Part shown: one piece after another, positions 1 through 33,864 of the stretch
How positions within the stretch are numbered: position 1 is the stretch's first letter
How the letters are laid out: every line of letters begins with the position of its first letter
NCBI GenBank assembly: GCA_001820175.1
Contig: MHOT01000005.1
Span: 1 to 33,864, forward strand
Origin: Candidatus Staskawiczbacteria bacterium RIFCSPHIGHO2_02_FULL_42_22
GTDB lineage: Bacteria; Patescibacteriota; Minisyncoccia; Minisyncoccales; Staskawiczbacteraceae
Direction: 5' to 3'
Length of the DNA stretch: 33,864 bases
Notes under the pieces: model-generated
What the model saw: the letters and a program-made list of their open reading frames with translations, nothing else
What the model was told of the DNA's origin: nothing
Database searches by the model: none
Made by a program: the position numbers and the translations under genes

Positions 1-1079
1 CGGCACCGCCATCGTCGGCACCATCTCCGGTACTGATATCTCCTTTGGCGCCGAATCAGTGTTCAATAGCGCATCCTCCCCCTACACCTCCGTCTCCGCC
101 CTCGATTCCACCCACGTGGTGGCGGTGTATCAGGATGGGGGCAACAGCGACTACGGCACCGCCGTCGTCGGCACGGTCTCGGGTACCGATATCTCCTTCG
201 GTTCCGAAGCCGTTTTCAACAGCGCAGCTTCCTACTACACCTCCGTCTCCGCCCTCGACTCCACCCACGTGGTGGCGGTGTATCGGGACGCCGGCAACAG
301 CGACTACGGCACCGCCATCGTCGGCACCGTCTCCGGTACTGATATCTCCTTTGGCGCCGAATCCGTTTTCAACAGCGCATTATCCAGCTACACCTCCGTC
401 TCCGCCCTCGATTCCACCCACGTGGTGGCGGTGTACCAGGACTTCGGCAACAGCAGTTACGGCACCGCCATCGTCGGCACCATCTCCGGTACTGATATCT
501 CCTTTGGCGCCGAATCAGTGTTCAATAGCGCATCCTCCCCCTACACCTCCGTCTCCGCCCTCGATTCCACCCACGTGGTGGCGGTGTATCAGGATGGGGG
601 CAACAGCGACTACGGCACCGCCGTCGTCGGCACGGTCTCGGGTACCGATATCTCCTTCGGTTCCGAAGCCGTTTTCAACAGCGCAGCTTCCTACTACACC
701 TCCGTCTCCGCCCTCGACTCCACCCACGTGGTGGCGGTGTATCGGGACGCCGGCAACAGCGACTACGGCACCGCCATCGTCGGCACCGTCTCCGGTACTG
801 ATATCTCCTTTGGCGCCGAATCCGTTTTCAACAGCGCATTATCCAGCTACACCTCCGTCTCCGCCCTCGATTCCACCCACGTGGTGGCGGTGTACCAGGA
901 CTTCGGCAACAGCAGTTACGGCACCGCCATCGTCGGCACCATCTCCGGTACTGATATCTCCTTTGGCGCCGAATCCGTTTTCAATAGCGGAACTTCCAGC
1001 TACACCTCCGTCTCCGCCCTCGACTCCACCCACGTGGTGGCGGTGTACAGGGATGATAGCAACAGCAATTACGGCACCG
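1..1079 (+). repeat. Tandem 153-bp coding repeat with 459-bp higher-order period
   Basis: Units of 153 bp (51 codons) start near 59, 212, 365, 518, 671, 824 and 977. Three different units form a 459-bp block. Bases 1-516 read identically to 460-975, while the three units within a block differ from each other. The array continues off the left edge, and the last unit (977 on) has diverged. This pattern fits a recent in-frame duplication of a three-unit block, but could also reflect an assembly error in a repeat. Confidence 0.95.
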
Positions 1080-2761
1080 CCGTCGTTGGCACAGTCGCTT
1101 CCAACACCGCCCCGTCCATCTCCGCCGGTCCCTCCGACGGTGGTTCTTCCTCCGCTTCTCCTACCACCGTCGGAAGCAACGTCACCTTCACTGCCACCGC
1201 TACGGACGGCGAGTCAGATCAGTATTATTTAGCCATATGTAAAACCAATAGCGTCACCGCCGTCAATAGCGCCGCTCCCACCTGCGGCGGAGGCAGCTGG
1301 GCCATTTCATCGGCCACCGCTTCGGGCTCGCAGGCATCGGTAACGTATGCGACGGTGGCGGGCGACAGTGAAAGCAACGCCTGGTTTGCGTTTGTGTGTG
1401 ATAACAATGCCTCGTCTTTGTGTTCCAGTTCCAGCCAAGGATCCGGCACCACCGGTTCTCCTTTTGAAGTCAACCACGTTCCCACTTTCACTTCGGTGGC
1501 CAACACTTCTGGCTATCTGAACACGGGAGACACTCTCACTTTTACTTCAGTAGCCAGTGATTCAGATACCAGTGGCACGGCCGACACCGTCACTTTGTAT
1601 ATCTGCAAATCCAACGACTTCACGGGTACCGCTTGCGGTGCCGGCGGAAGCTGGGCAACCTCCTCCGCTTCCAGTTCCAACCCATCTGCCACCTACACCG
1701 TTCTCTCCGGCGACACCGACGGCACCATCACCTACTACGCCAACCTAATTGATGACTCAAGCGCCGAGGCCTCCGCCAACCCTCTGACCGGAACTTTCCA
1801 AATTGACAACACCGCTCCCACGGTTTCCCTCACCGGCTCCCTGACCTGGCCGGCGCCGTTGACCACTTCATTCACTCCCACCGCCTCCGCTTCCGACGCC
1901 ACCTCGGGCATTGCCACCTACGCCTGGTCTCAAACCGCAGGCAGCGGCACCCTCACGTTTAGTTCCGCTTCCACCCTTTCCACTAGCATTACCGTCGATG
2001 CCACCGGAACCTATACCGTCCAGCTTACCGTCACCGACACTGCCGGCAACCAGACCACTTCGAGTTTCGACCTGACCTGGTCAAACCCCAGTTTTGGCGG
2101 TGGTGGAAACGGCTCCGGCGGCGGTTTCTCCGGCGGTAGCGGAGGATCCTCCTGTCCCGCCCCATCGGGTACCTGGACTTTCCAAATCAACCAAGGCCAG
2201 CCAACTACTCAAACCCGCGCCGTCACGCTTTCGTTTACCTCAAATCCTCCCATTACTCCCTCAACTCTCATTTCCGACACTCCCATTACCGTCACTCTTG
2301 CCAATGACTCCGCTTTTACCAACGCCGTCTCAAAACCCTACCAACCAGAACTTCCCTATACTCTCACCAAAGATCAAGGGACCAAGACCGTCTATGCCAA
2401 ACTCCAAAACTCTTGCGGCTCATTCACCCCAACCCTCTCGGCTGCCATCGATTATATCCCGCCACCCTTTACCTTTAAGATGCCATTCCTTTTCACCCGC
2501 ACCCTCGCCCCCGGCGACCAGGGCAACGACGTCAAGGAACTCCAACTCTTCCTTACCTCCTTAAATTTATTTCCTACCACCATTATTGCCAACGGCTACT
2601 ACGGCCCTACTACTACCGGCTCCGTCAGAAAGTTCCAGCAATCAAACAATATTCTCCAAACCGGCACCTTCGGCCCTCTGACCCGACGCGCCGCCAACAT
2701 CATCCAGTTAACCCGCGCCATCCGACAGTTGGAAGAATATTTGGCAAAATTGGCGGAGTAG
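2..2761 (+). CDS. Large repetitive surface protein, C-terminal part (5' end outside window)
   Basis: The frame is open from the left edge, so the true start lies upstream; the GTG at 59 is only an internal valine codon. The visible part begins with about seven 51-residue repeats, each containing YTSVSALDSTHVVAVY and ending GTDISFG, which look like beta-propeller or adhesin-type repeats. Next come Ig/PKD-like modules (for example TAPTVSLTGSLTW and YTVQLTVTDTAGN), a Gly/Ser-rich linker near 2090-2150, and a C-terminal peptidoglycan-binding-like domain (LAPGDQGNDVKELQLFL through FGPLTRRA). A secreted, wall-associated adhesin or surface protein is inferred. The codons are much more GC-rich than in most neighbours. 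The signal peptide is not in the window. The domain picture is fairly sure; the biological role is not known. Confidence 0.8.
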   Translation, partial: GTAIVGTISGTDISFGAESVFNSASSPYTSVSALDSTHVVAVYQDGGNSDYGTAVVGTVSGTDISFGSEAVFNSAASYYTSVSALDSTHVVAVYRDAGNSDYGTAIVGTVSGTDISFGAESVFNSALSSYTSVSALDSTHVVAVYQDFGNSSYGTAIVGTISGTDISFGAESVFNSASSPYTSVSALDSTHVVAVYQDGGNSDYGTAVVGTVSGTDISFGSEAVFNSAASYYTSVSALDSTHVVAVYRDAGNSDYGTAIVGTVSGTDISFGAESVFNSALSSYTSVSALDSTHVVAVYQDFGNSSYGTAIVGTISGTDISFGAESVFNSGTSSYTSVSALDSTHVVAVYRDDSNSNYGTAVVGTVASNTAPSISAGPSDGGSSSASPTTVGSNVTFTATATDGESDQYYLAICKTNSVTAVNSAAPTCGGGSWAISSATASGSQASVTYATVAGDSESNAWFAFVCDNNASSLCSSSSQGSGTTGSPFEVNHVPTFTSVANTSGYLNTGDTLTFTSVASDSDTSGTADTVTLYICKSNDFTGTACGAGGSWATSSASSSNPSATYTVLSGDTDGTITYYANLIDDSSAEASANPLTGTFQIDNTAPTVSLTGSLTWPAPLTTSFTPTASASDATSGIATYAWSQTAGSGTLTFSSASTLSTSITVDATGTYTVQLTVTDTAGNQTTSSFDLTWSNPSFGGGGNGSGGGFSGGSGGSSCPAPSGTWTFQINQGQPTTQTRAVTLSFTSNPPITPSTLISDTPITVTLANDSAFTNAVSKPYQPELPYTLTKDQGTKTVYAKLQNSCGSFTPTLSAAIDYIPPPFTFKMPFLFTRTLAPGDQGNDVKELQLFLTSLNLFPTTIIANGYYGPTTTGSVRKFQQSNNILQTGTFGPLTRRAANIIQLTRAIRQLEEYLAKLAE

Positions 2762-7824: not shown

Positions 7825-8214
7825 ATGCCACGAATCGCAGGGGTAAACATACCCGACAACAAAAGAATAGCAATTGCCATCACCTATATTTATGGGATAG
7901 GCAGGTCTTTGAGTGAAAAAATTATTAAGGAAACTAAAATTGACCCCAATAAAAAAGCAAAGGATTTGACTCCTGCAGAAATCAATGGTTTAAGGGAATT
8001 TATAGAAAAGTCATACAAGATTGAGGGTGACTTGCGAAGAGATGTGATGGTAAATATCAAACGATTAAAAGATATTGGAACTTGGCGGGGGAGTCGTCAT
8101 GCTAAAAAATTACCGGTGAGAGGTCAAAGGACAAAGACAAATACCAGAACAGTACGGGGAAATGTAAGAAAGACCATGGGTTCGGGAAGAAAACCGGCAG
8201 CGGCACCAACATAA
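7825..8214 (+). CDS. rpsM: Ribosomal protein uS13
   Basis: 129 residues, beginning MPRIAGVNIPDNKRIAIAIT, with YIYGIGRSLSEKI and the C-terminal RGQRTKTNTRTVRG that enters the 30S head and contacts tRNA. Family-typical length and position after rpmJ. Confidence 0.96.
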   Translation: MPRIAGVNIPDNKRIAIAITYIYGIGRSLSEKIIKETKIDPNKKAKDLTPAEINGLREFIEKSYKIEGDLRRDVMVNIKRLKDIGTWRGSRHAKKLPVRGQRTKTNTRTVRGNVRKTMGSGRKPAAAPT

Positions 8215-8215
8215 T

Positions 8216-8282
8216 CTAAATTCAAAACTCTAAATCCTAAACTCTAAACCGTTTAGAATTTAGAAATTAGAATTTAGAATTT
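8216..8282. repeat. Palindromic CTAAA/TTTAG repeat, rpsM-rpsK gap
   Basis: Runs of CTCTAAATCCTAAACTCTAAA face TTTAGAATTTAGAAATTAG, forming a long imperfect hairpin around ACCG. Copies lie at 8757-8824, 10750-10819, 30716-30757 (inverted) and, as a right half, 32341-32371. Confidence 0.9.
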
Positions 8283-8299
8283 CTTTTACGAAGTAAAAG
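8283..8299 (+). promoter_or_regulatory. Start-codon-adjacent hairpin of rpsK
   Basis: CTTTTAC-GAA-GTAAAAG ends two bases before ATG 8302. GAAG at 8290-8293 lies eight bases before the ATG. Confidence 0.6.
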
Positions 8300-8301
8300 C
8301 T

Positions 8302-8754
8302 ATGGGAAAAAAACATATTGCGACAACCAGCGGGGAAGATACCATAAAAGAGAAAGAAAGCGTTGATACGGCCTTAAAAAAAGAGGTGAAGGTCAAATCA
8401 ATTGATCGTGTTTCTGAAGCCAGAGTGTATGTATCTTCTTCGTATAACAATACCATTGTTACCCTTACCAATGCCAAGGGCGAGGTTTTGGTTTCAAAGT
8501 CGGCCGGCGCGGTAGGTTTTAAGGGTGCCAAAAAAGCAACTTCGTTTGCCGCTTCCCGGGTTGCCGAGGCCATTGTGAATGTTTGTAAAAAATTAGGGGT
8601 AGAAAGGGTAGAAGTGTTTATTAGGGGTGTTGGCGCGGGGCGCGAATCAGCAGTAAGAATATTGGTGAACCAGGGATTAAATGTAGTTTCAATAAAAGAT
8701 GTAACGCCTATTCCTCACAATGGAATCAGGCCCAAGAAGGTAAGGAGAGTGTAG
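8302..8754 (+). CDS. rpsK: Ribosomal protein uS11
   Basis: 150 residues. The core is typical: SSSYNNTIVTLTNAKGEVL, GFKGAKKATSFAA, and the C-terminal GLNVVSIKDVTPIPHNGIRP-KKVRRV. S11 sits in the 30S platform near the mRNA exit. There is an N-terminal extension of about 35 charged residues compared with E. coli. No classic Shine-Dalgarno precedes it, only the hairpin. Confidence 0.96.
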   Translation: MGKKHIATTSGEDTIKEKESVDTALKKEVKVKSIDRVSEARVYVSSSYNNTIVTLTNAKGEVLVSKSAGAVGFKGAKKATSFAASRVAEAIVNVCKKLGVERVEVFIRGVGAGRESAVRILVNQGLNVVSIKDVTPIPHNGIRPKKVRRV

Positions 8755-8756
8755 TG

Positions 8757-8824
8757 TGAAATCCTAAATCCTAAACTCTAAATCCTAAACCGTTTTAGAA
8801 TTTAGAAATTAGAATTTAGAGTTT
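8757..8824. repeat. Palindromic CTAAA/TTTAG repeat, rpsK-rpsD gap
   Basis: Near-copy of the 8216-8282 repeat: CCTAAATCCTAAACTCTAAA on the left faces TTAGAATTTAGAAATTAG on the right around the ACCG centre. Confidence 0.9.
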
Positions 8825-8841
8825 CTTTTGCAAAGCAAAAG
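8825..8841 (+). promoter_or_regulatory. Start-codon-adjacent hairpin of rpsD
   Basis: CTTTTGC-AAA-GCAAAAG ends two bases before ATG 8844. Compared with the rpsK hairpin the inner A-T pair is now G-C on both arms, a compensating change. Confidence 0.6.
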
Positions 8842-8843
8842 CT

Positions 8844-9407
8844 ATGGAGAATACTCAATTCAAAAACGTAAAACCGACCGGGCAGGGTGCCCCCGAAAAA
8901 AGAAAAAGGAAAAGCGCTGTTTCTGAATACAAAAAATCGCTGACCGAAAAGCAGACCCTTAAAAATTTGTACGGTTTATCTGAACGGCAATTTAAGCGTT
9001 ATGTGCTCCAAACCCTTGAAAAAATGGGTCGGGTCGAAAACGTGTCCAATGAACTTATTAGCCGTTTGGAAAAACGTTTGGACAATGCGGTATTTCGGTT
9101 GGGATTTTCAAAATCTCGCTCCCAATCGCGGCAAATGGTAAACCATGCCTATTTTTTGGTAAATGGAAAATCGGTTAATATTCCATCATTTCAAGTAAAA
9201 AAGGGAGATGTTATTGCCATGAAAGAGACCAAGAAAAAAAAGCCGATGTTCAAGGATTTATCAGAAACACTAAAAAAAATAGAGACACCAGTATGGTTGA
9301 ATTTAAATAAAGAAAAATTTGAATCAACGGTTACAGGTGAGCCAAGTTTGGCAGAAGTTAACCCGCCCGTTGAAATATCGTTGGTGTTTGAGTTCTACTC
9401 TAGATAA
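8844..9407 (+). CDS. rpsD: Ribosomal protein uS4
   Basis: 187 residues. LYGLSERQFKRYV and the S4 RNA-binding region RLDNAVFRLGFSKSRSQSRQ followed by MVNHAYFLVNGKSVNIPS are diagnostic. S4 nucleates 30S assembly. The four-cysteine N-terminal zinc knuckle of some S4 proteins is absent; the N-terminus is a shortened lysine-rich stretch. Placed before rpoA, the classical order. Confidence 0.96.
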   Translation: MENTQFKNVKPTGQGAPEKRKRKSAVSEYKKSLTEKQTLKNLYGLSERQFKRYVLQTLEKMGRVENVSNELISRLEKRLDNAVFRLGFSKSRSQSRQMVNHAYFLVNGKSVNIPSFQVKKGDVIAMKETKKKKPMFKDLSETLKKIETPVWLNLNKEKFESTVTGEPSLAEVNPPVEISLVFEFYSR

Positions 9408-10294: not shown

Positions 10295-10387
10295 GATGCG
10301 ATGCCAATATGCGAATGCATACTAATAATACCAATACGGAAACGTTATTCGTATAATTAGTATGAATTAGTATATTAGAATCGCATT
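10295..10387. repeat. Interspersed palindrome (ATGCGAT...ATCGCAT), uninterrupted copy
   Basis: ATGCGATGCCAATATGCG on the left and TATATTAGAATCGCAT on the right flank ACTAATAATACC / TTAGTATGAATTAG words. An inverted second copy at 33091-33360 is split by a foldback element, making this the intact reference. Confidence 0.85.
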
Positions 10388-10748: not shown

Positions 10749-10749
10749 G

Positions 10750-10819
10750 TGTGAAATCCTAAACTCTAAATCCTAAACTCTAAACCATTTTAGAATTTAG
10801 AAATTAGAATTTAGAATTT
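10750..10819. repeat. Palindromic CTAAA/TTTAG repeat, rplQ-rplM gap
   Basis: Third copy of this class in the operon, again ending in a short hairpin next to the start codon. Confidence 0.9.
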
Positions 10820-10836
10820 CTTTTGCGAAGCAAAAG
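10820..10836 (+). promoter_or_regulatory. Start-codon-adjacent hairpin of rplM
   Basis: CTTTTGC-GAA-GCAAAAG ends two bases before ATG 10839, with GAAG eight bases upstream of the ATG. Confidence 0.6.
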
Positions 10837-10838
10837 CT

Positions 10839-11201
10839 ATGGAAGTAATAAAACGAGACAATCATATTGTGGATGCAACTGATAGGCCCTTGGGCCGATT
10901 AGCTACCGAAGTGGCAGTTTTATTGCGCGGTAAAAATAAAGTGGGGTTTGCACCCTATAAAGATATTGGCGATTTTGTAACGGTAAAAAACGTTAACGGA
11001 TTAAAATATACGGGTAAGAAATTCCAAGATAAAATTTACTATCACCATACCTTGTATTTAGGAGGATTAAAACAGGCCACCATGAAAGAGGTGTATTTAA
11101 AAAAGGGGCCCGAAGAGATATTCAGAAAAGCGGTCATGGGAATGTTAACTAAAAATAAATTAAGGGCAAAACAAATTAAACGATTAAGATTCCAAAAATA
11201 A
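10839..11201 (+). CDS. rplM: Ribosomal protein uL13
   Basis: 120 residues: VDATDRPLGRLATEVAVLLR, YKDIGDFVTVKNV, LGGLKQATMKEVY and VMGMLTKNKLRAKQIKRLR. uL13 is an early 50S assembly protein. E. coli L13 is 142 residues; this one is trimmed at the C-terminus. Followed by rpsI, its usual partner. Confidence 0.95.
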   Translation: MEVIKRDNHIVDATDRPLGRLATEVAVLLRGKNKVGFAPYKDIGDFVTVKNVNGLKYTGKKFQDKIYYHHTLYLGGLKQATMKEVYLKKGPEEIFRKAVMGMLTKNKLRAKQIKRLRFQK

Positions 11202-13887: not shown

Positions 13888-15066
13888 ATGAATAAACCAC
13901 ATTTTACAATTAAAAATAATTTTCAAAAAGGGGGTATCTTGTATCAAGATTTATTAACTCCAGAAATACTATCTGATATTTGCTTGAAAGTTACGAATCG
14001 TCCTGATTATACATATGATTTTGATAATACCGGATATAATATAGGTAGACTTGTAGTGCTTGAATATCAAAATAAAAAACACTATGTTTCTATATCAGAA
14101 ACAGACATTAGAAGCAGAAATTCTAGCTTTCAGAGTCTTCCTAGCGCCCTATCGAGATATATTCTTGATAAAAATCCAAATAAGGAGATATCTTTTTACT
14201 TTTACCCTTCAATTACCGGTAACTACGAGACACCTTATTTTATTTTTATGTACCGTCTAATGAAAACTGCAAAGATTAGATTTCTAAATGAGACAAAATA
14301 TTTGAGCCATCCAGTGGTTCATTTTACAACAGCAGCAGATATTATTGCGAGTAAAGAGCAGCTTAGAACTAAAAATAGAGGAAATAGATCAACATATATC
14401 ACAAGAGGCCCTAATAACGAGTTACAAATTTACGGAAAAACGTATGGAGCTAATAAGTACGAAACAACCATCCTTTGTTTGGCTTTATCAGAAATCGCCG
14501 ACTCAAAAGTTCAATTATTTCAAATTGGAGACGGTGGTCTAACAGAGTTGCCGCAAACAGCAAAAGATGCTATTGAATCACTTGGGGTTGTTAAAATCTA
14601 TACCTCCAACAAAAAAATTGAAAAAATAGACTTTGAAGAAAATGATAGTTTGCGCTCCATCGAGTATGTATATAATCTTTTAGAAAAACTAGGTGGGAAA
14701 AAATGTGCTTTTTGTGGTTGTGAAATTCCTCAGATCATTCATGGTGCACACATTTGGCCTGTAACTGACATAAAAAAGGATAAAACTTTATCTAAAGATA
14801 AAAAATTGGCTTTCGCTCTCGATGGAGAAAATGGTCTTTGGCTTTGTCAAAATCACCATAAATTACTCGATGTAAACATTTTGAGAATATCAGAAAACGG
14901 AAAAGTTAAGTACAGTTCGGAAATCAATGGATTAAACGCAATATTTTTGAAATACATAACAAAACAAACTCAGCTTCAGGGCACAATTCTTTCAAGTAGA
15001 TTTATTTATTATTTAAGAAAAAGAAATAACATCTTAAAAGAATCATTATATTGCGAAATAACATAA
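13888..15066 (+). CDS. HNH nuclease, probable restriction endonuclease partner
   Basis: 392 residues. The C-terminal third carries an HNH module: CAFCGCEIP (from about residue 273), GAHIWPVTDI, and ENGLWLCQNHHKLLD, supplying the metal-binding and catalytic histidine/asparagine set plus a CxxC zinc pair. The N-terminal ~250 residues are not recognised and probably recognise DNA or the partner. Two-base spacing from the double methylase and shared AT-rich composition make a type II (type IIS-like) restriction role the best guess. A modification-dependent McrA-like nuclease is an alternative. No second methylase or specificity subunit is nearby. Confidence 0.7.
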   Translation: MNKPHFTIKNNFQKGGILYQDLLTPEILSDICLKVTNRPDYTYDFDNTGYNIGRLVVLEYQNKKHYVSISETDIRSRNSSFQSLPSALSRYILDKNPNKEISFYFYPSITGNYETPYFIFMYRLMKTAKIRFLNETKYLSHPVVHFTTAADIIASKEQLRTKNRGNRSTYITRGPNNELQIYGKTYGANKYETTILCLALSEIADSKVQLFQIGDGGLTELPQTAKDAIESLGVVKIYTSNKKIEKIDFEENDSLRSIEYVYNLLEKLGGKKCAFCGCEIPQIIHGAHIWPVTDIKKDKTLSKDKKLAFALDGENGLWLCQNHHKLLDVNILRISENGKVKYSSEINGLNAIFLKYITKQTQLQGTILSSRFIYYLRKRNNILKESLYCEIT

Positions 15067-15095
15067 AAAATATACCCTCACATACTGTGTTAAAC

Positions 15096-15123
15096 TTGAC
15101 TCCAGGAACCATTGTTATATAAT
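15096..15123 (+). promoter_or_regulatory. Strong promoter with no downstream ORF
   Basis: TTGACT (15096-15101), a 16-nt spacer and a perfect TATAAT (15118-15123). It lies 30 bp after the HNH gene and drives no credible coding region. Confidence 0.65.
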
Positions 15124-15129
15124 TAGCTA

Positions 15130-15266
15130 AATTAGTGATTGCCAGTTTATATCCCCGATATTGTTTCTCGCTTCAGTGAGGGTGGGTAACCACTCCTCAT
15201 CAGTGGGCCAAACGATAAAGAAATCCTCCAAGATTACACCAAGAAACCGCCAATGGCGGTTTTTTT
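15130..15266 (+). ncRNA. Candidate small RNA, about 137 nt
   Basis: It is bounded by a good promoter (TTGACT-16-TATAAT) and an intrinsic terminator (15244-15266). Inside are short stems, CTCGC-TTCA-GTGAG (15169-15182) and CCACT-CCTCATC-AGTGG. The only overlapping ORF runs through the terminator into a foldback element and is not convincing. I do not recognise an RNA family. It could serve the restriction system or be an independent housekeeping RNA. Confidence 0.45.
15244..15266 (+). terminator. Rho-independent terminator of the candidate small RNA
   Basis: ACCGCC-AAT-GGCGGT, extended by A-T pairs, is followed by seven T. It would also end read-through from the HNH gene. Confidence 0.85.
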
Positions 15267-15286
15267 GGTGTTCAAATTCAAATATA

Positions 15287-15460
15287 ACCGTGAATTACGA
15301 AATGCTTTCGAGGGATTTTTTCCAAATTTTGAGCGAAAATGTGATAGAATTCTGAGGCATAGCCAAGGGCTCTGTCGAAGAATTATTGCACATTTGCAGC
15401 CAAAATTTGGGGAAAAGACCCGAAAAGTCATTCTCAAGCGGGCATTTCGTAATTCACGGT
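15287..15460. mobile_element. Foldback element D (174 bp)
   Basis: 19-bp perfect terminal inverted repeats, ACCGTGAATTACGAAATGC and its complement, enclose inner arms CCAAATTTTG / CAAAATTTGG, AAATGTG / CACATTT, and an apex hairpin GAGGCATAGCC-AAG-GGCTCTGTCGA. No coding capacity. Part of the interior (CAAATTTTGAGC, TGATAGAATT) recurs in the element at the right edge of the window. Confidence 0.8.
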
Positions 15461-15464
15461 ATGA

Positions 15465-15499
15465 ATAAAAAAGTCGTTTCGGGGCCTCCGATACGACTT
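15465..15499 (-). terminator. Terminator of the Clp-N gene
   Basis: On the minus strand, AAGTCGT ... ACGACTT with an inner GC-rich part is followed by six T (the A run 15467-15472 on the plus strand). Confidence 0.8.
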
Positions 15500-15516
15500 G
15501 TTTGGTTCAAAAAAAT

Positions 15517-16080
15517 TTACACTTTCTTTATGACAATGGATTCTCCTTCTTTCATATCACGGAGAAACTGCATTATTTGTTCAAGGGTAGAATCATTGAA
15601 TTCCAGAATTGTTACCGTTTGCAGCTCTAATTTTGGCAACGGTTCATTTCCCAAAAGGAAATTAACTTCCTGTCTTACCTCTTCCAATTTTACTCCTAAA
15701 TTCATTAAAATCTTGCATGCGATGCTTTCTTGATCGCGCAAAATTGCAAGAAGCAGATGTTCAGTGCCAACGCGACGGTGGCCGAGTCCCCTGGCCTCCA
15801 AGTAGGAAAAGTCAAGAATTCTTTTGGTGGTTGGTGTGTTAGTTAACTTTCCTATGGATGGTCCGTCCGGACCAATTTGGACGATTTTTTCAACTTCAAG
15901 GCGAATTCTGTGAAGATCAACACCAATATTTTTAAGTGCATTAGCGCCAACCCCTGATCCTTCTTTGGCCAGGCCCAGCAAAACATGTTCGCTTCCAATA
16001 TATTGATGGTTAAAGCGTTTTGCTTCATGTTCGGCCCAGGCCATAACCCTGCATGCGCGGTCAGTGAAGTTTTCGTACAT
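15517..16080 (-). CDS. Clp N-terminal-domain protein without ATPase modules
   Basis: 187 residues with two Clp-N repeats: one around NHQYIGSEHVLLGLAKEG and one around GHRRVGTEHLLLAILRD. In ClpA/ClpC these domains bind substrates and adaptors, but here no Walker A/B or AAA+ module follows. Instead a 40-residue tail (LPKLELQTVTILEFND and so on) ends the protein. It may modulate a full-length ClpC or act as an adaptor. The start MYENFTDRACR at 16080 is chosen because AAGGAG lies eight bases upstream; the longer frame to 16152 would be read through that site. It follows the PEGA gene by 83 bp on the same strand and ends at its own terminator. Confidence 0.8.
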   Translation of the reverse strand: MYENFTDRACRVMAWAEHEAKRFNHQYIGSEHVLLGLAKEGSGVGANALKNIGVDLHRIRLEVEKIVQIGPDGPSIGKLTNTPTTKRILDFSYLEARGLGHRRVGTEHLLLAILRDQESIACKILMNLGVKLEEVRQEVNFLLGNEPLPKLELQTVTILEFNDSTLEQIMQFLRDMKEGESIVIKKV

Positions 16081-16163
16081 GAAACCACTCCTTAAAAAGA
16101 AAAGCAGGAATGTGAAAGGTACTACTATTAAGTGTATATTAGCGCTAAACAATTATCAATATT

Positions 16164-17513
16164 TTACGGCACCAATCTTTCCGAAACCAGTAAACCGCCT
16201 TCGCTTAACAGGTATAACTTTTTATCCTGCTGATTAAAAAAGATGTCAGGGCTTTTTATGTCAATTAAATTCTCATCTGTCAGCAATGCTTTTTGCGGCA
16301 ACGTTACGGTATTTACGTTTCCGCGGGTGTCGATTTCAGAAATAACAATAGCGTCTCTTAGGGTAAAAATAACGTAATCGTTTCCCAGCCACTGAGCTTC
16401 GTTAATAGTGTCGGAAAATCTATTTAAAAATACTGCCGCTGGGTTTTGCATATGTGTCTTTGACAGTAATATTTCATGGTCGTTTTGGTATAGAATTTTT
16501 TGGCCATCGGGCGAAGTTATTATTTCATGAACGGAGCTGTAAAAGTTTTTAAATGCTTCCGATTCACTATCCAGTAAAAATAGCGACTGGTTTTCCTGCA
16601 AAAAAGTCATATCGGCTCGCCTCAATATTTTATAAGCCGCCTCGGTTTTAATGGGGAAGGGTTTTTTGGTTAAGGTATTTATTACTATGCCCCTGGTGGT
16701 TGAGGTATATAAAAATCCATCCTGCGATAACCAGCTAATACTATTATTTGCCACGTGCCAGGCGGCAATATTTTTTATTAAAGGAAGCGTTTGTTGATTG
16801 GAATACAGATTTTTGTTTTTAACAAAAAATATTTCATTAGGATTTTCCGGATTAAAAGAAGCGTCCTCCGCCTTAGTTAGCAAGGCAAGCACAGTAATTT
16901 TTGGGTTTTGCGAAACCGATGTTACCAAAAAATAATTGCTCCCCAGTCGCACTAATGTGCGGCTTGAATCGCCCGACCACGCTACGCTGGAAATGTTGCC
17001 AGTGGCGCCAAAAAGCAGGTCTTCTGTTTGATTATTTTCAAGATGCACTAATTGATAATTGATTTTTTGTCCGATTACGATTTTAAGTAAGATGTTTTTT
17101 TCATCGGGCGAGGGATAAAATTCTTGAACGTTATTTTGCAATAAAGTAAAGCGCGGTTGCTGTTTCATTAATATTACGTTTTCTAGTTTGGTAACCGATT
17201 GGTCCAGGACTTCTAAGTTTTTTTGGTAGTCAAAATAACCGTCTTTTTTTATGGTTACGGTATGCGGTCCGGGAAGAAGATTTTGCCGAAAAACAGAAGG
17301 AGAAAACAGTCCTGTAGTTTGGCTGGCAAGCGAATCAATGGTAATGGTTGCTCCCTGGGGCAAGGCCCGTACATACATTCCGCCCGTGGCCGTTATGTTA
17401 AACCGTCGTATGTCAATGCGGTATCCCAGCGAATAGAGTATAATGTAGGGCGCAATAACCACAAATAATGCCAGACAAATCAAAAATACAATAAATCGGG
17501 TTTTTCTTGTCAT
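16164..17513 (-). CDS. Membrane-anchored PEGA-domain protein
   Basis: 449 residues. An N-terminal membrane anchor (FIVFLICLALFVVIAPYIIL) is followed by a PEGA module: GGMYVRALPQGATITIDS to LLPGPHTVTIKKDGYFDY. The rest (about 120-449) is rich in short beta motifs such as FYPSPDEKNILL, VAWSGDSSRTLV and ITSPDGQKILY, which look like a beta-propeller. An extracellular structural or sensing role is inferred; the function is unknown. The start codon abuts the end of foldback element A (17515), so its upstream region is now the element arm. No clear Shine-Dalgarno is present. Confidence 0.7.
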   Translation of the reverse strand: MTRKTRFIVFLICLALFVVIAPYIILYSLGYRIDIRRFNITATGGMYVRALPQGATITIDSLASQTTGLFSPSVFRQNLLPGPHTVTIKKDGYFDYQKNLEVLDQSVTKLENVILMKQQPRFTLLQNNVQEFYPSPDEKNILLKIVIGQKINYQLVHLENNQTEDLLFGATGNISSVAWSGDSSRTLVRLGSNYFLVTSVSQNPKITVLALLTKAEDASFNPENPNEIFFVKNKNLYSNQQTLPLIKNIAAWHVANNSISWLSQDGFLYTSTTRGIVINTLTKKPFPIKTEAAYKILRRADMTFLQENQSLFLLDSESEAFKNFYSSVHEIITSPDGQKILYQNDHEILLSKTHMQNPAAVFLNRFSDTINEAQWLGNDYVIFTLRDAIVISEIDTRGNVNTVTLPQKALLTDENLIDIKSPDIFFNQQDKKLYLLSEGGLLVSERLVP

Positions 17514-17514
17514 A

Positions 17515-17898
17515 ATAGATAGAATATTCCAGAATCGGACTTAAGGCCTCGTCCGTAAATAACATACAAGTTTTTCGCCAAGATGTCTGTCGCCTTGGCT
17601 CAAAAAAATGTGAGGCATAATAAAGTTATGCCGAGCATTTTTTGGAGCCAAGATGGCGGGCAGATTGGATGAAAAAGTGTATGTTATTTACGGACGAGGC
17701 CTAAGACCTAGAACATTTGGCAATATTGGTTGTCTTGGAGTCAAGACGCGAGGGTAATGTGTCGCAACAAATTCGCCCCGTCTCCAAAAAATTTACGAGG
17801 CGTAGCCGAAGCTACGGCGAGTAAATTTTTTGGGAAAGACAGTCAAGATTGGCAAATGGGCAGGTTCTTGGAGTCCGATTCTGGAATGTTTTATCTAT
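17515..17898. mobile_element. Foldback element A (384 bp), interrupted by element A1
   Basis: The ends ATAGATAGAATATTCCAGAA (left) and the complement of ATAGATAAAACATTCCAGAA (right) are inverted. Inside are secondary arms CATTTGGCAAT...TGTCTT / AAGACAG...ATTGGCAAATG and an apex hairpin CCAAAAAATTTAC ... GTAAATTTTTTGG with GCGTAGC / GCTACG. Removing the nested A1 (159 bp) leaves about 225 bp of simple foldback. No ORF. Confidence 0.8.
17544..17702. mobile_element. Foldback element A1 (159 bp) nested in element A
   Basis: 24-bp perfect terminal inverted repeats begin AGGCCTCGTCCGTAAATAAC (17544-17567 and 17679-17702). The interior is also folded: CTTGGCTCAAAAAAATG / CATTTTTTGGAGCCAAG and apex GGCATAA-TAAAG-TTATGCC. 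It separates CTTA from AGACC in the stem of element A. Its end matches the start of the partial element at 33774. Confidence 0.85.
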
Positions 17899-17941
17899 AA
17901 GCCGTATTCTATCAAAAATAGCCCTTTTTTCAATGATGACT

Positions 17942-18122
17942 ATAGATAAAACATTCCAGAATCGCCCTGATAACCTATAAAAATTGCGCCTCGGGGATGT
18001 TTTTCCCTTAAAAAATTCTCGATGCAGCTACGGCTGCATCTTTGGTTTTTTAAGCTCCAAAACACCCCGATGCATCAATTTTTCTGGCGATTCCAAGGGC
18101 GATTCTGGAATGTTTTATCTAT
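17942..18122. mobile_element. Foldback element B (181 bp)
   Basis: 27-bp perfect terminal inverted repeats begin ATAGATAAAACATTCCAGAA. Inner arms AAAAATTG...CGGGG / CCCCG...CAATTTTT and apex GATGCAGC-TACG-GCTGCATC lie between. The ends are shared with element A, 43 bp to the left, but the interior differs. Confidence 0.85.
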
Positions 18123-18125
18123 ATG

Positions 18126-18134
18126 TGTTATAGT
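18126..18134 (+). promoter_or_regulatory. Extended -10 promoter for the small paralogues
   Basis: TG-T-TATAGT lies four bases after the end of element B; no good -35 is visible. Predicted start is near 18141, with a leader of about 58 bases. Confidence 0.45.
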
Positions 18135-18198
18135 TAGGTCGGTTCTTTGAGGGGGTATTGGTGCCTGGCAAGAAAATGTCTAGCAAAAGGAGTCAGTC

Positions 18199-18429
18199 AT
18201 GTGGTTTTTCGTGCCGGTCAAGCGCCGAATTGATGGCTATACTGTCGGCAAACTGGTCGCTAATGTTTCGTGTGGCCAGGAAGCGGGTGCAGAGATTGAC
18301 AAAAGGTCGGCTCAATGTAGCGAAGAGTTTTACCTGGGCTATATAATTTACGGTCCCTTTAATACTTTCGAAGAATTAAACAAGTACTACGATTCTTTTT
18401 TTGCGCCCAAGGCCGAATTCGTTGCTTGA
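18199..18429 (+). CDS. Small protein of unknown function, paralogue 1
   Basis: 76 residues starting MWFFVPVKRRIDGYTVGKLV, with LGYIIYGPFNTFEELNKYY near the end. AAAGGAG lies six bases before the ATG, one of the few perfect Shine-Dalgarno sites here. The next gene encodes a relative: both have MW-(F/Y)-(F/Y)-x-x-VK-x-R-x-x-G at the start and LG-x-I-x-x-GPF near the end. No signal peptide or membrane segment. I do not recognise the family; the GPF motif followed by a charged helix suggests a small soluble domain. Confidence 0.65.
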   Translation: MWFFVPVKRRIDGYTVGKLVANVSCGQEAGAEIDKRSAQCSEEFYLGYIIYGPFNTFEELNKYYDSFFAPKAEFVA

Positions 18430-18476
18430 GTAGAGCTTAATAGGAATGCTCTGCGCAACACAAGAAAGGATTGTCT

Positions 18477-18677
18477 ATGTGGTACTACCGGACTGTAAAG
18501 GCGCGTGAGGAGGGGATTGGCATAACCTTCGGTCGGATTACCGGTGACGGCCAGACCGATAAAATTGCTGACGCAAAAATTCAGCAAACTGCCACAAATT
18601 TGCCCGATAATCTTTGTTTAGGGCTTATTCTTCATGGTCCTTTCAAAAACAAAGAAATAGCAGAAACCTCAGTATGA
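18477..18677 (+). CDS. Small protein of unknown function, paralogue 2
   Basis: 66 residues, MWYYRTVKAREEGIGITFGR and so on, ending LCLGLILHGPFKNKEIAETS-V. AAAGGA lies six bases before the ATG; an in-frame TTG at 18471 overlaps the Shine-Dalgarno spacing and is rejected. It resembles the preceding gene (47 bp upstream) and probably arose by tandem duplication with strong divergence. The pair ends at a shared terminator at 18688. Confidence 0.6.
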   Translation: MWYYRTVKAREEGIGITFGRITGDGQTDKIADAKIQQTATNLPDNLCLGLILHGPFKNKEIAETSV

Positions 18678-18687
18678 TATTATCGAA

Positions 18688-18724
18688 AACCCGACTCTTC
18701 AGTGAGCTCGGGTTATTTTTTTTC
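18688..18724 (+). terminator. Terminator of the small paralogue pair
   Basis: AACCCGA-CTC-TTCA-...-GAG-C-TCGGGTT followed by A and a long T run. The last stem bases also contain the stop codon of the opposing gene (18713-18715). Confidence 0.85.
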
Positions 18725-21218: not shown

Positions 21219-21340
21219 TAATTATCAAGTATCAATTATCAAGTATCAATTAAGTATTAAATTACTAAATTATCAAATTCGTATTTTCGTCATTGAAAAT
21301 TCACTCTATTGATAATTTATTGAAAATTGAAAATTGATAA
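21219..21340. repeat. ATCAAGTATCAATTATC-class palindromic repeat, murA leader
   Basis: AATTATCAAGTATCAATTAT words on the left face ATTGATAATT and TTGAAAATTG words on the right. Nearly identical for about 90 bp to the copy at 25791-25925; others lie at 22616-22722 and 28374-28458. Confidence 0.9.
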
Positions 21341-21352
21341 TTGAAAATTTCG

Positions 21353-25790: not shown

Positions 25791-25925
25791 ACCAAGTATC
25801 AAGTATCAATTATCAAGTATCAATTAAGTATTAAATTACTAAATTATCAAATTCGTATTTTCGTCATTGAAAATTCACTCCATTGATAATTTATTGAAAA
25901 TTGATAATTGAAAATTGAAAATTCG
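25791..25925. repeat. ATCAAGTATCAATTATC-class repeat, frr-rseP gap
   Basis: Near-identical to the murA leader repeat, for example both read TTCGTATTTTCGTCATTG followed by AAAATTCACTC with one difference (T/C) just after. It ends right before the rseP ATG. Confidence 0.9.
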
Positions 25926-25927
25926 TT

Positions 25928-27128: not shown

Positions 27129-28373
27129 ATGTTACAATCAAAACTCTTCTACAAAACCAATAAAAATAAATCCGCTTTGGCGGATTCTGTTTCGCACGAC
27201 CTTTTGGTGCGGGCAGGATACATTGACCAATTAATGGCCGGGGTGTATTCTTTTATGCCCCTGGGATTTAGAGTTTTAAAAAATATTGAAGATATTATTC
27301 GAAAAAATATGGAAGCAATTGGCGGGCAAGAGTTATTATTACCGGTTTTGCAGCCCAAAGAAAATTGGCAAAAAACGGGCCGGTGGGAAACCTTGGATAT
27401 ATTATTTAAAGTAAAGGGATCGGGCGATAAAGAGTACGCCATGGGTCCGACCCACGAAGAGGTGGTGACCCCCTTGGCAAAAAAAATGGTATTTTCGTAT
27501 CGTGATTTGCCATTTTCAGTTTTTCAAATTCAAACAAAATTCAGGGACGAATTGCGTGCTAAGTCGGGGATTTTAAGGACGCGCGAATTTTTAATGAAAG
27601 ATTTGTATTCTTTCCATGCAACACAGGCGGATTTTGATGCTTATTACGAAAAATTAGCAAAAGTGTATACCAATATTTTTAAAGAAGTCGGCATTGGAAA
27701 AATTACCCATAGAACCTTGGCTAGCGGTGGCAGTTTTTCAAAATATTCTGACGAATTCCAGACGATTACAAATGCTGGCGAAGACATTATTTATATTTGC
27801 AAAAAATGCAGCACTTCAATTAATAAAGAAATAAAAGCAGAATATCCAATATGCCCAAAGTGCAAGGCAAATGAATTTGAAGAAAAAAAATCAATTGAAG
27901 TTGGCAATATTTTTCCTTTAGGGACGGGATTTTCAAAACCGTTTGATTTGAAATTTACCGATAAAGACGCCACCGACAAACCCGTGTTAATGGGATGCTA
28001 TGGAATTGGCTTGGGCCGGCTCATGGGAGCTATTGTTGAGGCAAGTCACGATGAAAAAGGAATTATCTGGCCAAAGTCAGTCGCCCCATTTTTGGTGCAT
28101 TTAATTCAACTTGGGACTGACAAAAAAATTACAACATCGGCGCAAAAATTATACAAGAGTTTACAAATGGAACATCTTGAAGTACTATATGACGACAGGG
28201 TAAAAACTCCTGGGGAAAAATTTGCCGAGAGCGATTTACTGGGAATTCCATATCGAGTGGTTATTTCAGAAAAGACGCTGGCAAAAAATTCAGTGGAGGT
28301 TAAGGAAAGAAGCAAAAATAGCGTGAAGTTGGTGAAGATAAGCCAACTTCATAAAATTTTCAATTATCAATGA
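27129..28373 (+). CDS. proS: Prolyl-tRNA synthetase, short form without editing insertion
   Basis: 414 residues. Class II core: YSFMPLGFRVLKNIEDIIRK, the motif 2 region FQIQTKFRDELRAKSGILRT and GCYGIGLGRLMGA (motif 3), then an anticodon-binding domain (HLIQLGTDKKIT onward). Bacterial ProRS is normally about 565 residues with an editing insertion of about 180; here the same place holds only a four-cysteine knuckle (CKKCS...CPKCK). The last codons and the stop are contributed by the following repeat (KIFNYQ). No stand-alone YbaK/ProX editing protein is seen in the window. Confidence 0.94.
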   Translation: MLQSKLFYKTNKNKSALADSVSHDLLVRAGYIDQLMAGVYSFMPLGFRVLKNIEDIIRKNMEAIGGQELLLPVLQPKENWQKTGRWETLDILFKVKGSGDKEYAMGPTHEEVVTPLAKKMVFSYRDLPFSVFQIQTKFRDELRAKSGILRTREFLMKDLYSFHATQADFDAYYEKLAKVYTNIFKEVGIGKITHRTLASGGSFSKYSDEFQTITNAGEDIIYICKKCSTSINKEIKAEYPICPKCKANEFEEKKSIEVGNIFPLGTGFSKPFDLKFTDKDATDKPVLMGCYGIGLGRLMGAIVEASHDEKGIIWPKSVAPFLVHLIQLGTDKKITTSAQKLYKSLQMEHLEVLYDDRVKTPGEKFAESDLLGIPYRVVISEKTLAKNSVEVKERSKNSVKLVKISQLHKIFNYQ

Positions 28374-28458
28374 TCAATTTTCAATAACGACGCCGTTTAA
28401 TTGATAATTTAGTAATTTAATACTTAATTGATAATTGATACTTGATAATTGATAATTT
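28374..28458. repeat. ATCAAGTATCAATTATC-class repeat (inverted), proS-mreB gap
   Basis: AATTGATAATTGATACTTGA on the right faces TCAATTATCAATGATCAATT on the left, which overlaps the proS stop. Fourth copy of the class. Confidence 0.8.
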
Positions 28459-30655: not shown

Positions 30656-30806
30656 GAAATTATTCTAATTAATCTAATTGTTCTAATTATTCTAAATAAT
30701 ACCCAATGCCCAACCTCTAAACCGTTTTAGAATTTAGAGTTTAGGATTTAGGATTTCAAACTTGGGATTTGATTAGGTTAATTAGAATAATTAGGGTAAT
30801 TAGAAA
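30656..30806. repeat. Composite repeat in the gatC-gatA gap
   Basis: Outer words TTATTCTAATTAATCTAATT and AGGTTAATTAGAATAATTAG are inverted and enclose an inverted CTAAA/TTTAG-class copy (30716-30757). A repeat inside a repeat. Confidence 0.85.
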
Positions 30807-33090: not shown

Positions 33091-33360
33091 TGCGATTCTA
33101 ATATACTAATTCATACTAATAATACTAATGCGAAAACGTTATTTGTATCATTATGGACATCACATCCAGAAACCGCACTTAAGTTGCCGACGGTTTGGCA
33201 ATCTTGGGCGGCTTGGAGCAAAAAATTTGTGAGGCCTAGCCGTAGCTACGCCGAACAAATTTTTTGTGAAAACTGCCCAAGATTGGCAAATCCGGCAAGA
33301 CTTGGAGTGCGGTTTCTGGATGTGATGTCCATAGTATGCATTCGCATATTGGCATCGCAC
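33091..33360. repeat. Second copy of the ATGCGAT palindrome, split by element C
   Basis: The left part (33091-33152) and right part (33333-33360) match the reverse complement of 10295-10387, for example GCGATTCTAATATACTAATT and AGTATGCATTCGCATATTGG. The foldback element C lies between them. Confidence 0.85.
33153..33332. mobile_element. Foldback element C (180 bp)
   Basis: 28-bp perfect ends begin ATGGACATCACATCCAGAAA. Inner arms GGTTTGGCAATCTTGGGC / GCCCAAGATTGGCAAATC and apex CAAAAAATTTGTGAGGC ... GCCGAACAAATTTTTTG with CTAGC / GCTACG. Interior and CATCCAGAA end resemble element A. Confidence 0.88.
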
Positions 33361-33769: not shown

Positions 33770-33773
33770 TATT

Positions 33774-33864
33774 AGACCTGTCCCTAAATAAGATTTGTTA
33801 CGAAAATTACAAATTTTGAGCTGGAAATTTGATAGAATTTTTCGGCTTGCCCATAGGCCCGCCG
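33774..33864. mobile_element. Partial foldback element E, cut by the window edge
   Basis: The left end AGACCTGTCCCTAAATAAGA resembles the A1 end AGGCCTCGTCCGTAAATAAC. The interior shares CAAATTTTGAGC and TGATAGAATT with element D. The right half lies outside the window. Confidence 0.6.

What the first reader, a model, noticed from the sequence alone, without database searches (positions are those of the whole stretch)
15344..15387. Conserved tandem G-A mismatches in the apex hairpins
In A1, A2, C and D the apex left arm reads GAGGC and the right arm GCCGA, GGCGA or GTCGA. The outer GA steps oppose each other as tandem G-A mismatches, while the flanking helices differ in sequence. Structure kept while sequence varies suggests selection on a folded nucleic acid (RNA or single-stranded DNA) recognised by a protein. 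Element B lacks it.
Basis: partly seen in the sequence, partly recalled or inferred. Interest (0 to 1): 0.7.

Follow-up and report, generated by a model that had tools for sequence, protein, structure and literature searches.

The report
G·A pairs in folded mobile repeats
The window holds several short palindromic jumping-DNA repeats (MITEs) of a Staskawiczbacteria genome whose central hairpins recurrently carry a paired GA/GA mismatch; the mismatch is real but not universal, and it belongs to a wider one-strand-only pattern of G·A pairs suggesting that one strand of these repeats must fold.

Summary
The GA/GA step is present in A1, A2, C and D and absent in B, as described. It sits at the tip of ~160-190 bp palindromic MITEs with target duplications (A: TA; C: 7 bp; D: 3 bp). 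Two families share their ends with transposase-bearing insertion sequences in sister genomes: IS982-like for C, IS5-like for a further family, F.

'Conserved' is only partly true. Of 152 apexes found with a model trained half on GA/GA copies, 41 have GA/GA. In a sample chosen only by its outer ends, 2 of 19 do; most copies pair Watson-Crick there. But when both step pairs are broken, 41 of 50 are GA/GA. It recurs in several element families, several Staskawiczbacteria genomes and other families of the order, including hits of a model blind to the step.

The stronger signal is polarity. In the ~44-bp core stem, mismatches are A·G, G·G and G·T on one strand (A·G 349 against C·T 36); the outer arms show no A·G bias. 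Orientation relative to neighbouring genes is random (48 against 44). This favours selection on one folded strand, more likely single-stranded DNA than read-through mRNA, and argues against a terminator. The recognising protein is unknown; many sites are not phylogenetically independent.

The parts
15287..15460 (+). Element C: palindromic MITE with IS982-like (C-type) ends; + strand is the folding strand
   Evidence: Palindrome and fold; copies in own genome; same ends bound an IS982-like transposase gene in sister genomes
15346..15386 (+). Apex hairpin of C; GA/GA step 15354-15355 with 15377-15378; also a G·A and an A·G mismatch in the adjoining GATAG/ATTATTGC stem
   Evidence: Sequence; apex model hit
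17542..17704 (+). Element D: palindromic MITE, 3-bp TSD (TAA), inserted inside A1; GA/GA 17612-17613 with 17633-17634
   Evidence: Sequence; three copies in own genome; TSD
17515..17900 (+). Element A1: A-like element with ends TATAGATARAAYATTCCAGAATC, split by D; GA/GA 17797-17798 with 17819-17820 (left boundary approximate)
   Evidence: Sequence; match to A2 over its inner part; apex model hit
17942..18122 (.). Element B: palindromic MITE without a GA/GA step
   Evidence: Sequence; second copy in contig C21, itself carrying a D-like insertion
33152..33333 (+). Element A2: palindromic MITE, TSD TA; GA/GA 33231-33232 with 33253-33254
   Evidence: Sequence; about 30 or more copies; TSD; its target is a copy of the repeat at 10296-10386
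33771..33864 (+). Left part of an F-type MITE (ends TAGACCTGTCCCTAAATAAG, IS5-like), cut off by the contig end; step left half is TC, as in paired F copies
   Evidence: Sequence; same ends as L175 and as the IS5-like transposon in L342

Best explanation
The elements are non-autonomous palindromic MITEs that use the terminal repeats of several DDE transposons (shown for IS982-like and IS5-like ends; inferred for the TA and 3-bp families). The transposase acts on the ends. Inside lies a core hairpin of roughly 40-45 bp per arm that is not derived from the transposon and is shared between MITEs with different ends. One defined strand of this core is kept foldable: changes in the arms are mostly re-paired Watson-Crick, and the mismatches that persist are mostly G·A, G·G and G·T on that strand. 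GA/GA at the apex, usually in a 5'-pyrimidine-GA-purine setting that is known to form a stable sheared tandem pair (general knowledge), is the most frequent non-Watson-Crick form of that step. Most likely the folding strand acts as single-stranded DNA or an extruded hairpin during replication or transposition, where a stable but strand-marked hairpin helps the element persist or be recognised. Shown: MITE nature, shared ends, recurrence of GA/GA, one-strand bias, random orientation to genes. Inferred: selection as the cause, DNA rather than RNA, and any protein partner.
For: TSDs and copy numbers. IS982-like and IS5-like genes bounded by the C and F ends; MITE and transposon share only the terminal 15-25 bp. 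One core with C ends and with F ends; A core with three end types. GA/GA in other genera and families of the order, also with the step-masked model. Core mismatches A·G 349 vs C·T 36 with no A·G bias in the outer arm; folding strand more stable in 81 of 85 (DNA) or 77 of 85 (RNA) clusters. Folding strand same as co-directional flanking genes 48, opposite 44. Few one-sided G·U changes (10 cells) against 68 two-sided ones.
Against: Many mismatches were inherited from a few founders, so the raw counts overstate independence. Flipping mismatches at random within single elements was significant only for C, D, L096 and L198 (RNA energies) and L096 (DNA energies). One GA/GA lineage (L255) leans the other way. 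Fully paired apexes are common, so GA/GA is not required. DDE transposition needs no single-stranded hairpin. The parents of A, B and D were not found.
Confidence: 0.5

Rival explanations
1. The core is a structured RNA transcribed from the element's own promoter, and the G·A pairs including GA/GA are RNA structural motifs, perhaps guarding against or guiding RNase III or binding a protein.
For: Folding strand more stable with RNA energies in 77 of 85 clusters; published bacterial MITEs carry promoters and RNase III-processed hairpins (PMC10969869).
Against: G·T versus A·C bias, the main RNA expectation, is the mildest of the strand biases (150 vs 99) while A·G vs C·T is extreme; few G·U intermediates; no Rfam family above its gathering score; orientation to genes random, which excludes read-through transcripts as the selected form.
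Confidence: 0.22
2. No selection on folding. The palindromes are kept by arm-to-arm copying, and GA/GA is a mosaic of a GA/TC parent arm and a TC/GA parent arm that spread with a few successful founders; the strand bias is a founder effect.
For: Both Watson-Crick parent types exist (GA/TC in L015 and L091; TC/GA in C and F copies). Other mosaics (AA/GA, GA/AA) occur. Hybrid ends exist (L071).
Against: GA/GA recurs in element types with unrelated outer sequence and in other families of the order. About 14 columns of the C/F core lean one way against one (my count), while the outer arms of the same elements do not show the A·G bias.
Confidence: 0.22
3. The apexes are bidirectional transcription terminators and the GA/GA step is incidental.
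For: A-run and T-run flanked GC-rich stems in the apexes of A1, A2 and D.
Against: No excess between convergent genes: 12 convergent, 11 divergent, 92 between co-directional genes; a terminator role predicts no one-strand mismatch bias.
Confidence: 0.05

Closest known systems
Bacterial MITEs (Correia/NEMIS, ERIC, RUP, QMITE type)
   Same: Short, non-coding, terminal repeats, TSDs, high copy number, intergenic, strong hairpin potential; mobilised by transposases encoded elsewhere
   Different: Whole-length palindromes with a core shared between MITEs of different transposon families, and a strand-polarised set of G·A pairs in the core; neither feature was found in the papers read
REPs/REPINs with TnpA-REP (RAYT)
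   Same: Strand-specific hairpin; E. coli REPs carry a conserved internal mismatch (AA-GC) that the transposase needs (PMC8266576); whole element can fold as a hairpin (PMC3116915)
   Different: Here there are TSDs and DDE-transposon ends, no GTAG foot 5' of the hairpin, and no Y1 transposase detected in this genome
IS982-like and IS5-like insertion sequences of Staskawiczbacteria (L338, L340, L342)
   Same: Same terminal repeats as the C and F MITEs, and for C a comparable 7-bp TSD (L338)
   Different: They encode the transposase and lack the palindromic core
Kink-turn RNA
   Same: Tandem G·A / A·G step between two helices
   Different: No three-nucleotide bulge next to the step

Membership tests
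MITE | Short (under about 500 bp), no transposase gene, many copies | tested here: met
   About 160-190 bp; about 30 or more copies of A and about 15 of C in 821 kb
MITE | Terminal inverted repeats and target site duplication | tested here: met
   A: TA at 29 of 31 sites; C: exact 7 bp at 13 of 33; D: 3 bp at 3 of 4; empty site for A2 in the window
MITE | Ends shared with an autonomous transposon | tested here: met
   Met for C (L338, L340) and F (L342) in sister genomes. Not found for A, B and D: no A-end copy with a gene in the genus, and the IS630-type element L337 has other ends
IS982 family (parent of C) | IS982-type DDE transposase | tested here: inconclusive
   Best NCBIfam model is IS982, E 1.4e-32 and 2.3e-32, but 113 bits against a cut-off of 130; Pfam DDE_Tnp_1_3 and DDE_Tnp_1 above cut-off
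IS5 family (parent of F) | IS5-type DDE transposase | tested here: inconclusive
   Only NCBIfam match is IS5, 53.5 bits against a cut-off of 140; Pfam DDE_Tnp_4 above cut-off
REP/REPIN | Cognate Y1 transposase (RAYT) in the genome | tested here: not met
   No PF01797 hit in G000 or in G012, both rich in elements; 34 of 58 relatives have one
REP/REPIN | GTAG (or CGTC) tag at the 5' foot of the hairpin | tested here: not met
   GTAG occurs only inside some apex stems, not at a foot, and is absent from others
REP/REPIN | Strand-specific recognition of the folded single strand | not testable with these tools
   Needs binding and cleavage assays
Intrinsic terminator | Placed at the 3' ends of transcription units, enriched between convergent genes | tested here: not met
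   12 convergent vs 11 divergent
Known RNA family (Rfam 15) | Score above a family's gathering threshold | tested here: not met
   Only sub-threshold microRNA models in 15000-18700
Kink-turn | Three-nucleotide bulge beside tandem G·A pairs | tested here: not met
   Step is a symmetric 2x2 loop in the alignments

The most novel reading that the evidence does not exclude
The core hairpin is an independent module, folded on one specific strand and recognised as single-stranded DNA or RNA through its G·A pairs, that spreads through Patescibacteria by riding on the ends of several unrelated DDE transposon families and exchanging those ends.
Probability: 0.25. Interest if true: 0.75.

Novelty: new variant of a known kind. 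Interest (0 to 1): 0.5.

Why it matters
MITEs are usually treated as dead ends defined by their tips. Here the inside carries a signal: one core shared by MITEs with unrelated transposon ends, with a directional bias in which mispairs survive. If selection causes this, it gives a simple sequence test for which strand of a palindromic repeat folds in the cell, and points to an unknown partner (a protein or a single-stranded intermediate) in uncultivated Patescibacteria. No description of such elements in Patescibacteria turned up in the few open-access paper searches made.

Tried and rejected
RAYT/REP origin: no Y1_Tnp in own genome. IS630 as parent of A: one IS630-type gene exists (L337, TSD TA), but its ends TAGCCTGTTAAAAACAAAATG do not match A ends. 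Autonomous copy with A ends: not found; the A-end pattern gave 39 hits in the own genome and 7 in G010, nearly all pairing as the two ends of MITE copies, one belonging to the hybrid L071. Known RNA families: only sub-threshold microRNA models. Terminators: no convergent bias. Kink-turn: no bulge. In the single-element flip test L186, L233 and L218 were not evaluated because the script did not locate the apex, and the DNA version was mostly not significant. A column-by-column table for ungapped C/F cores kept only 5 elements because of indels and was not used.

Full report
What is there. The window is a whole contig (C5, 33,864 bp) of an 821-kb genome in 30 contigs. Sister genomes that carry the same elements are named Candidatus Staskawiczbacteria (Patescibacteria) in public records. 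The GA/GA steps lie where described: C 15354-15355 / 15377-15378, A1 17797-17798 / 17819-17820, A2 33231-33232 / 33253-33254, D 17612-17613 / 17633-17634; B has none.

They are MITEs. A2 has about 30 or more copies in the own genome, C about 15, D 3 and B 2. Target duplications are TA for A-type ends (29 of 31 sites), an exact 7 bp for C-type ends in 13 of 33, and 3 bp for D in 3 of 4. A2 sits in a copy of the repeat at 10296-10386, so the empty site can be read in the same window. In sister genomes the C ends bound an IS982-like transposase gene (L338, L340) and the F ends (TAGACCTGTCCCTAAATAAC) bound an IS5-like one (L342). The family models match, but below NCBI's curated cut-offs, so 'like' is meant literally. 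MITE and transposon share only the terminal 15-25 bp; the interior is not transposon-derived.

Modules. The same core, GAAATTTGATAGAATTTT-apex-AAAATTATAGCAAATTT, occurs between C ends and between F ends. The A core occurs with three different end types. A hybrid with two different ends exists (L071).

Is GA/GA kept? A covariance model of the apex found hits in most genomes of the genus and a few in other families of the order. Among 152 unique apexes in the held loci, 41 have GA/GA, 5 AA/GA, 3 GA/AA and 1 GC/AA, with a few single mismatches; the rest pair, in many sequence forms. The model was built from a set that was half GA/GA, so this fraction is inflated. Two checks avoid that. A pattern using only the outer C ends gave 19 palindromic elements, of which 2 have GA/GA (L325, L330) and 17 are paired; the twentieth hit, L324, has no palindromic interior. 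A model with the step masked as N still returned, outside the genus, elements of one type in three or four genera of two families; of the seven whose sequence was read or whose near-identical sisters were read, five are GA/GA, one AA/GA and one GC/AA, none paired (one of the three G073 places was not read and is counted with its equal-scoring sister). So the step is optional in the C and F families but recurrent, and when both step pairs are broken the result is nearly always GA/GA or its one-base neighbour.

Covariation. On 24 apexes picked by hand, 85% of cells pair, 16 of 19 pairs carry double changes (shuffles 9.4) and the covariation score is 0.415 against 0.146. This shows that the palindrome is maintained; it does not by itself show an RNA. 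One-sided changes to G·U are few (10 cells) against 68 two-sided changes, which fits arm-to-arm correction of DNA better than slow RNA co-evolution.

Strand polarity. In a palindrome a mismatch that reads purine-purine on one strand reads pyrimidine-pyrimidine on the other. Across 85 cluster representatives the core (within 44 nt of the apex helix) has A·G 349 against C·T 36, G·G 76 against C·C 16, G·T 150 against A·C 99, A·A 63 against T·T 43. The outer arms have A·G 82 against C·T 100 and G·T 145 against A·C 117, with smaller biases in G·G (52 against 22) and T·T (89 against 49). The folding strand is more stable in 81 of 85 clusters with DNA energies and 77 of 85 with RNA energies. Orientation was set by the GA/GA step or by the GATAG motif, so the fair test is the remaining sites: about 14 columns of the C/F core lean one way and one leans the other (my count), and 11 of 12 GA/GA lineages printed lean the same way in their core counts (those counts start outside the step). 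Descent makes these tests weaker than the raw counts suggest. Random flipping of mismatches within single elements gave significance only for C, D, L096 and L198 with RNA energies and L096 with DNA energies; other palindromes of the window used as controls were not significant.

Orientation. The folding strand is the same as co-directional flanking genes in 48 cases and opposite in 44; GA/GA copies 16 and 15; convergent 12, divergent 11 (gene calls by a simple codon model). Selection on read-through transcripts or terminator function would not give one preferred strand under random orientation.

Mechanism. I conclude that a DDE transposase moves the ends, while the core is kept foldable on one strand. 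Because orientation to genes is random and G·U intermediates are few, I favour folded single-stranded DNA over RNA. The role of GA/GA would be a stable sheared tandem pair that keeps the hairpin foldable yet marks the strand. The known precedent is the conserved internal mismatch of E. coli REPs, which TnpA-REP needs and reads on one strand only (PMC8266576). These elements are not REPs: they have target duplications and transposon ends, lack a GTAG foot, and the genome has no detectable RAYT.

Limits. The parents of A, B and D were not found. No expression or binding data exist here. Founder effects are the main threat to the polarity argument. The paper searches covered open-access text only.

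Noticed in passing
window 1-1218: Seven tandem 153-bp repeats (69-100% alike) at the contig start, inside a long open reading frame (59-2761, 900 codons).
   Followed up: no
window 33771-33864: An F-type MITE (ends TAGACCTGTCCCTAAATAAG) is cut off by the contig end; MITEs may be breaking the assembly.
   Followed up: partly
C/F-type cores, e.g. window 15341-15352 with 15380-15392: Nearly all C/F cores keep a G·A and an A·G mismatch in TTTGATAGAATT / AATTATAGCAAA, more constant than the apex GA/GA step.
   Followed up: partly
L071 1170-1250 (G000 C12): A hybrid 81-bp element with two different end types, as expected if ends are exchanged by recombination.
   Followed up: partly
L342 1090-1173 and 2055-2137 (G010 C25): Two short F-like palindromic copies, one inside and one abutting the IS5-like transposon with F ends.
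   Followed up: no
L337 912-2027 (G000 C30): The only IS630-type transposon found in the genus, with 35-bp ends TATAGCCTGTTAAAAACAAAATGTCGC... and TA at both sides; ends unlike the A MITEs.
   Followed up: partly
L324 253-421 (Ca. Vogelbacteria): C-type ends facing each other around an interior that is not palindromic.
   Followed up: no
window 8212-8306, 8754-8848, 10749-10843, 21220-21349, 25791-25926, 28355-28458, 30663-30805: AT-rich palindromic repeats between genes, made of short units such as CTAAATCCTAAA or AATTATCAA; a different repeat class without clear strand bias in two used as controls (21220, 25791).
   Followed up: partly
L073 833-1136, L074 1126-1337 (G000): A-type elements carry further nested hairpins (GGAGTCAAGACGCGAGG..., CGAGGATAGCGAAGGGAG...) inserted inside the arms.
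   Followed up: no
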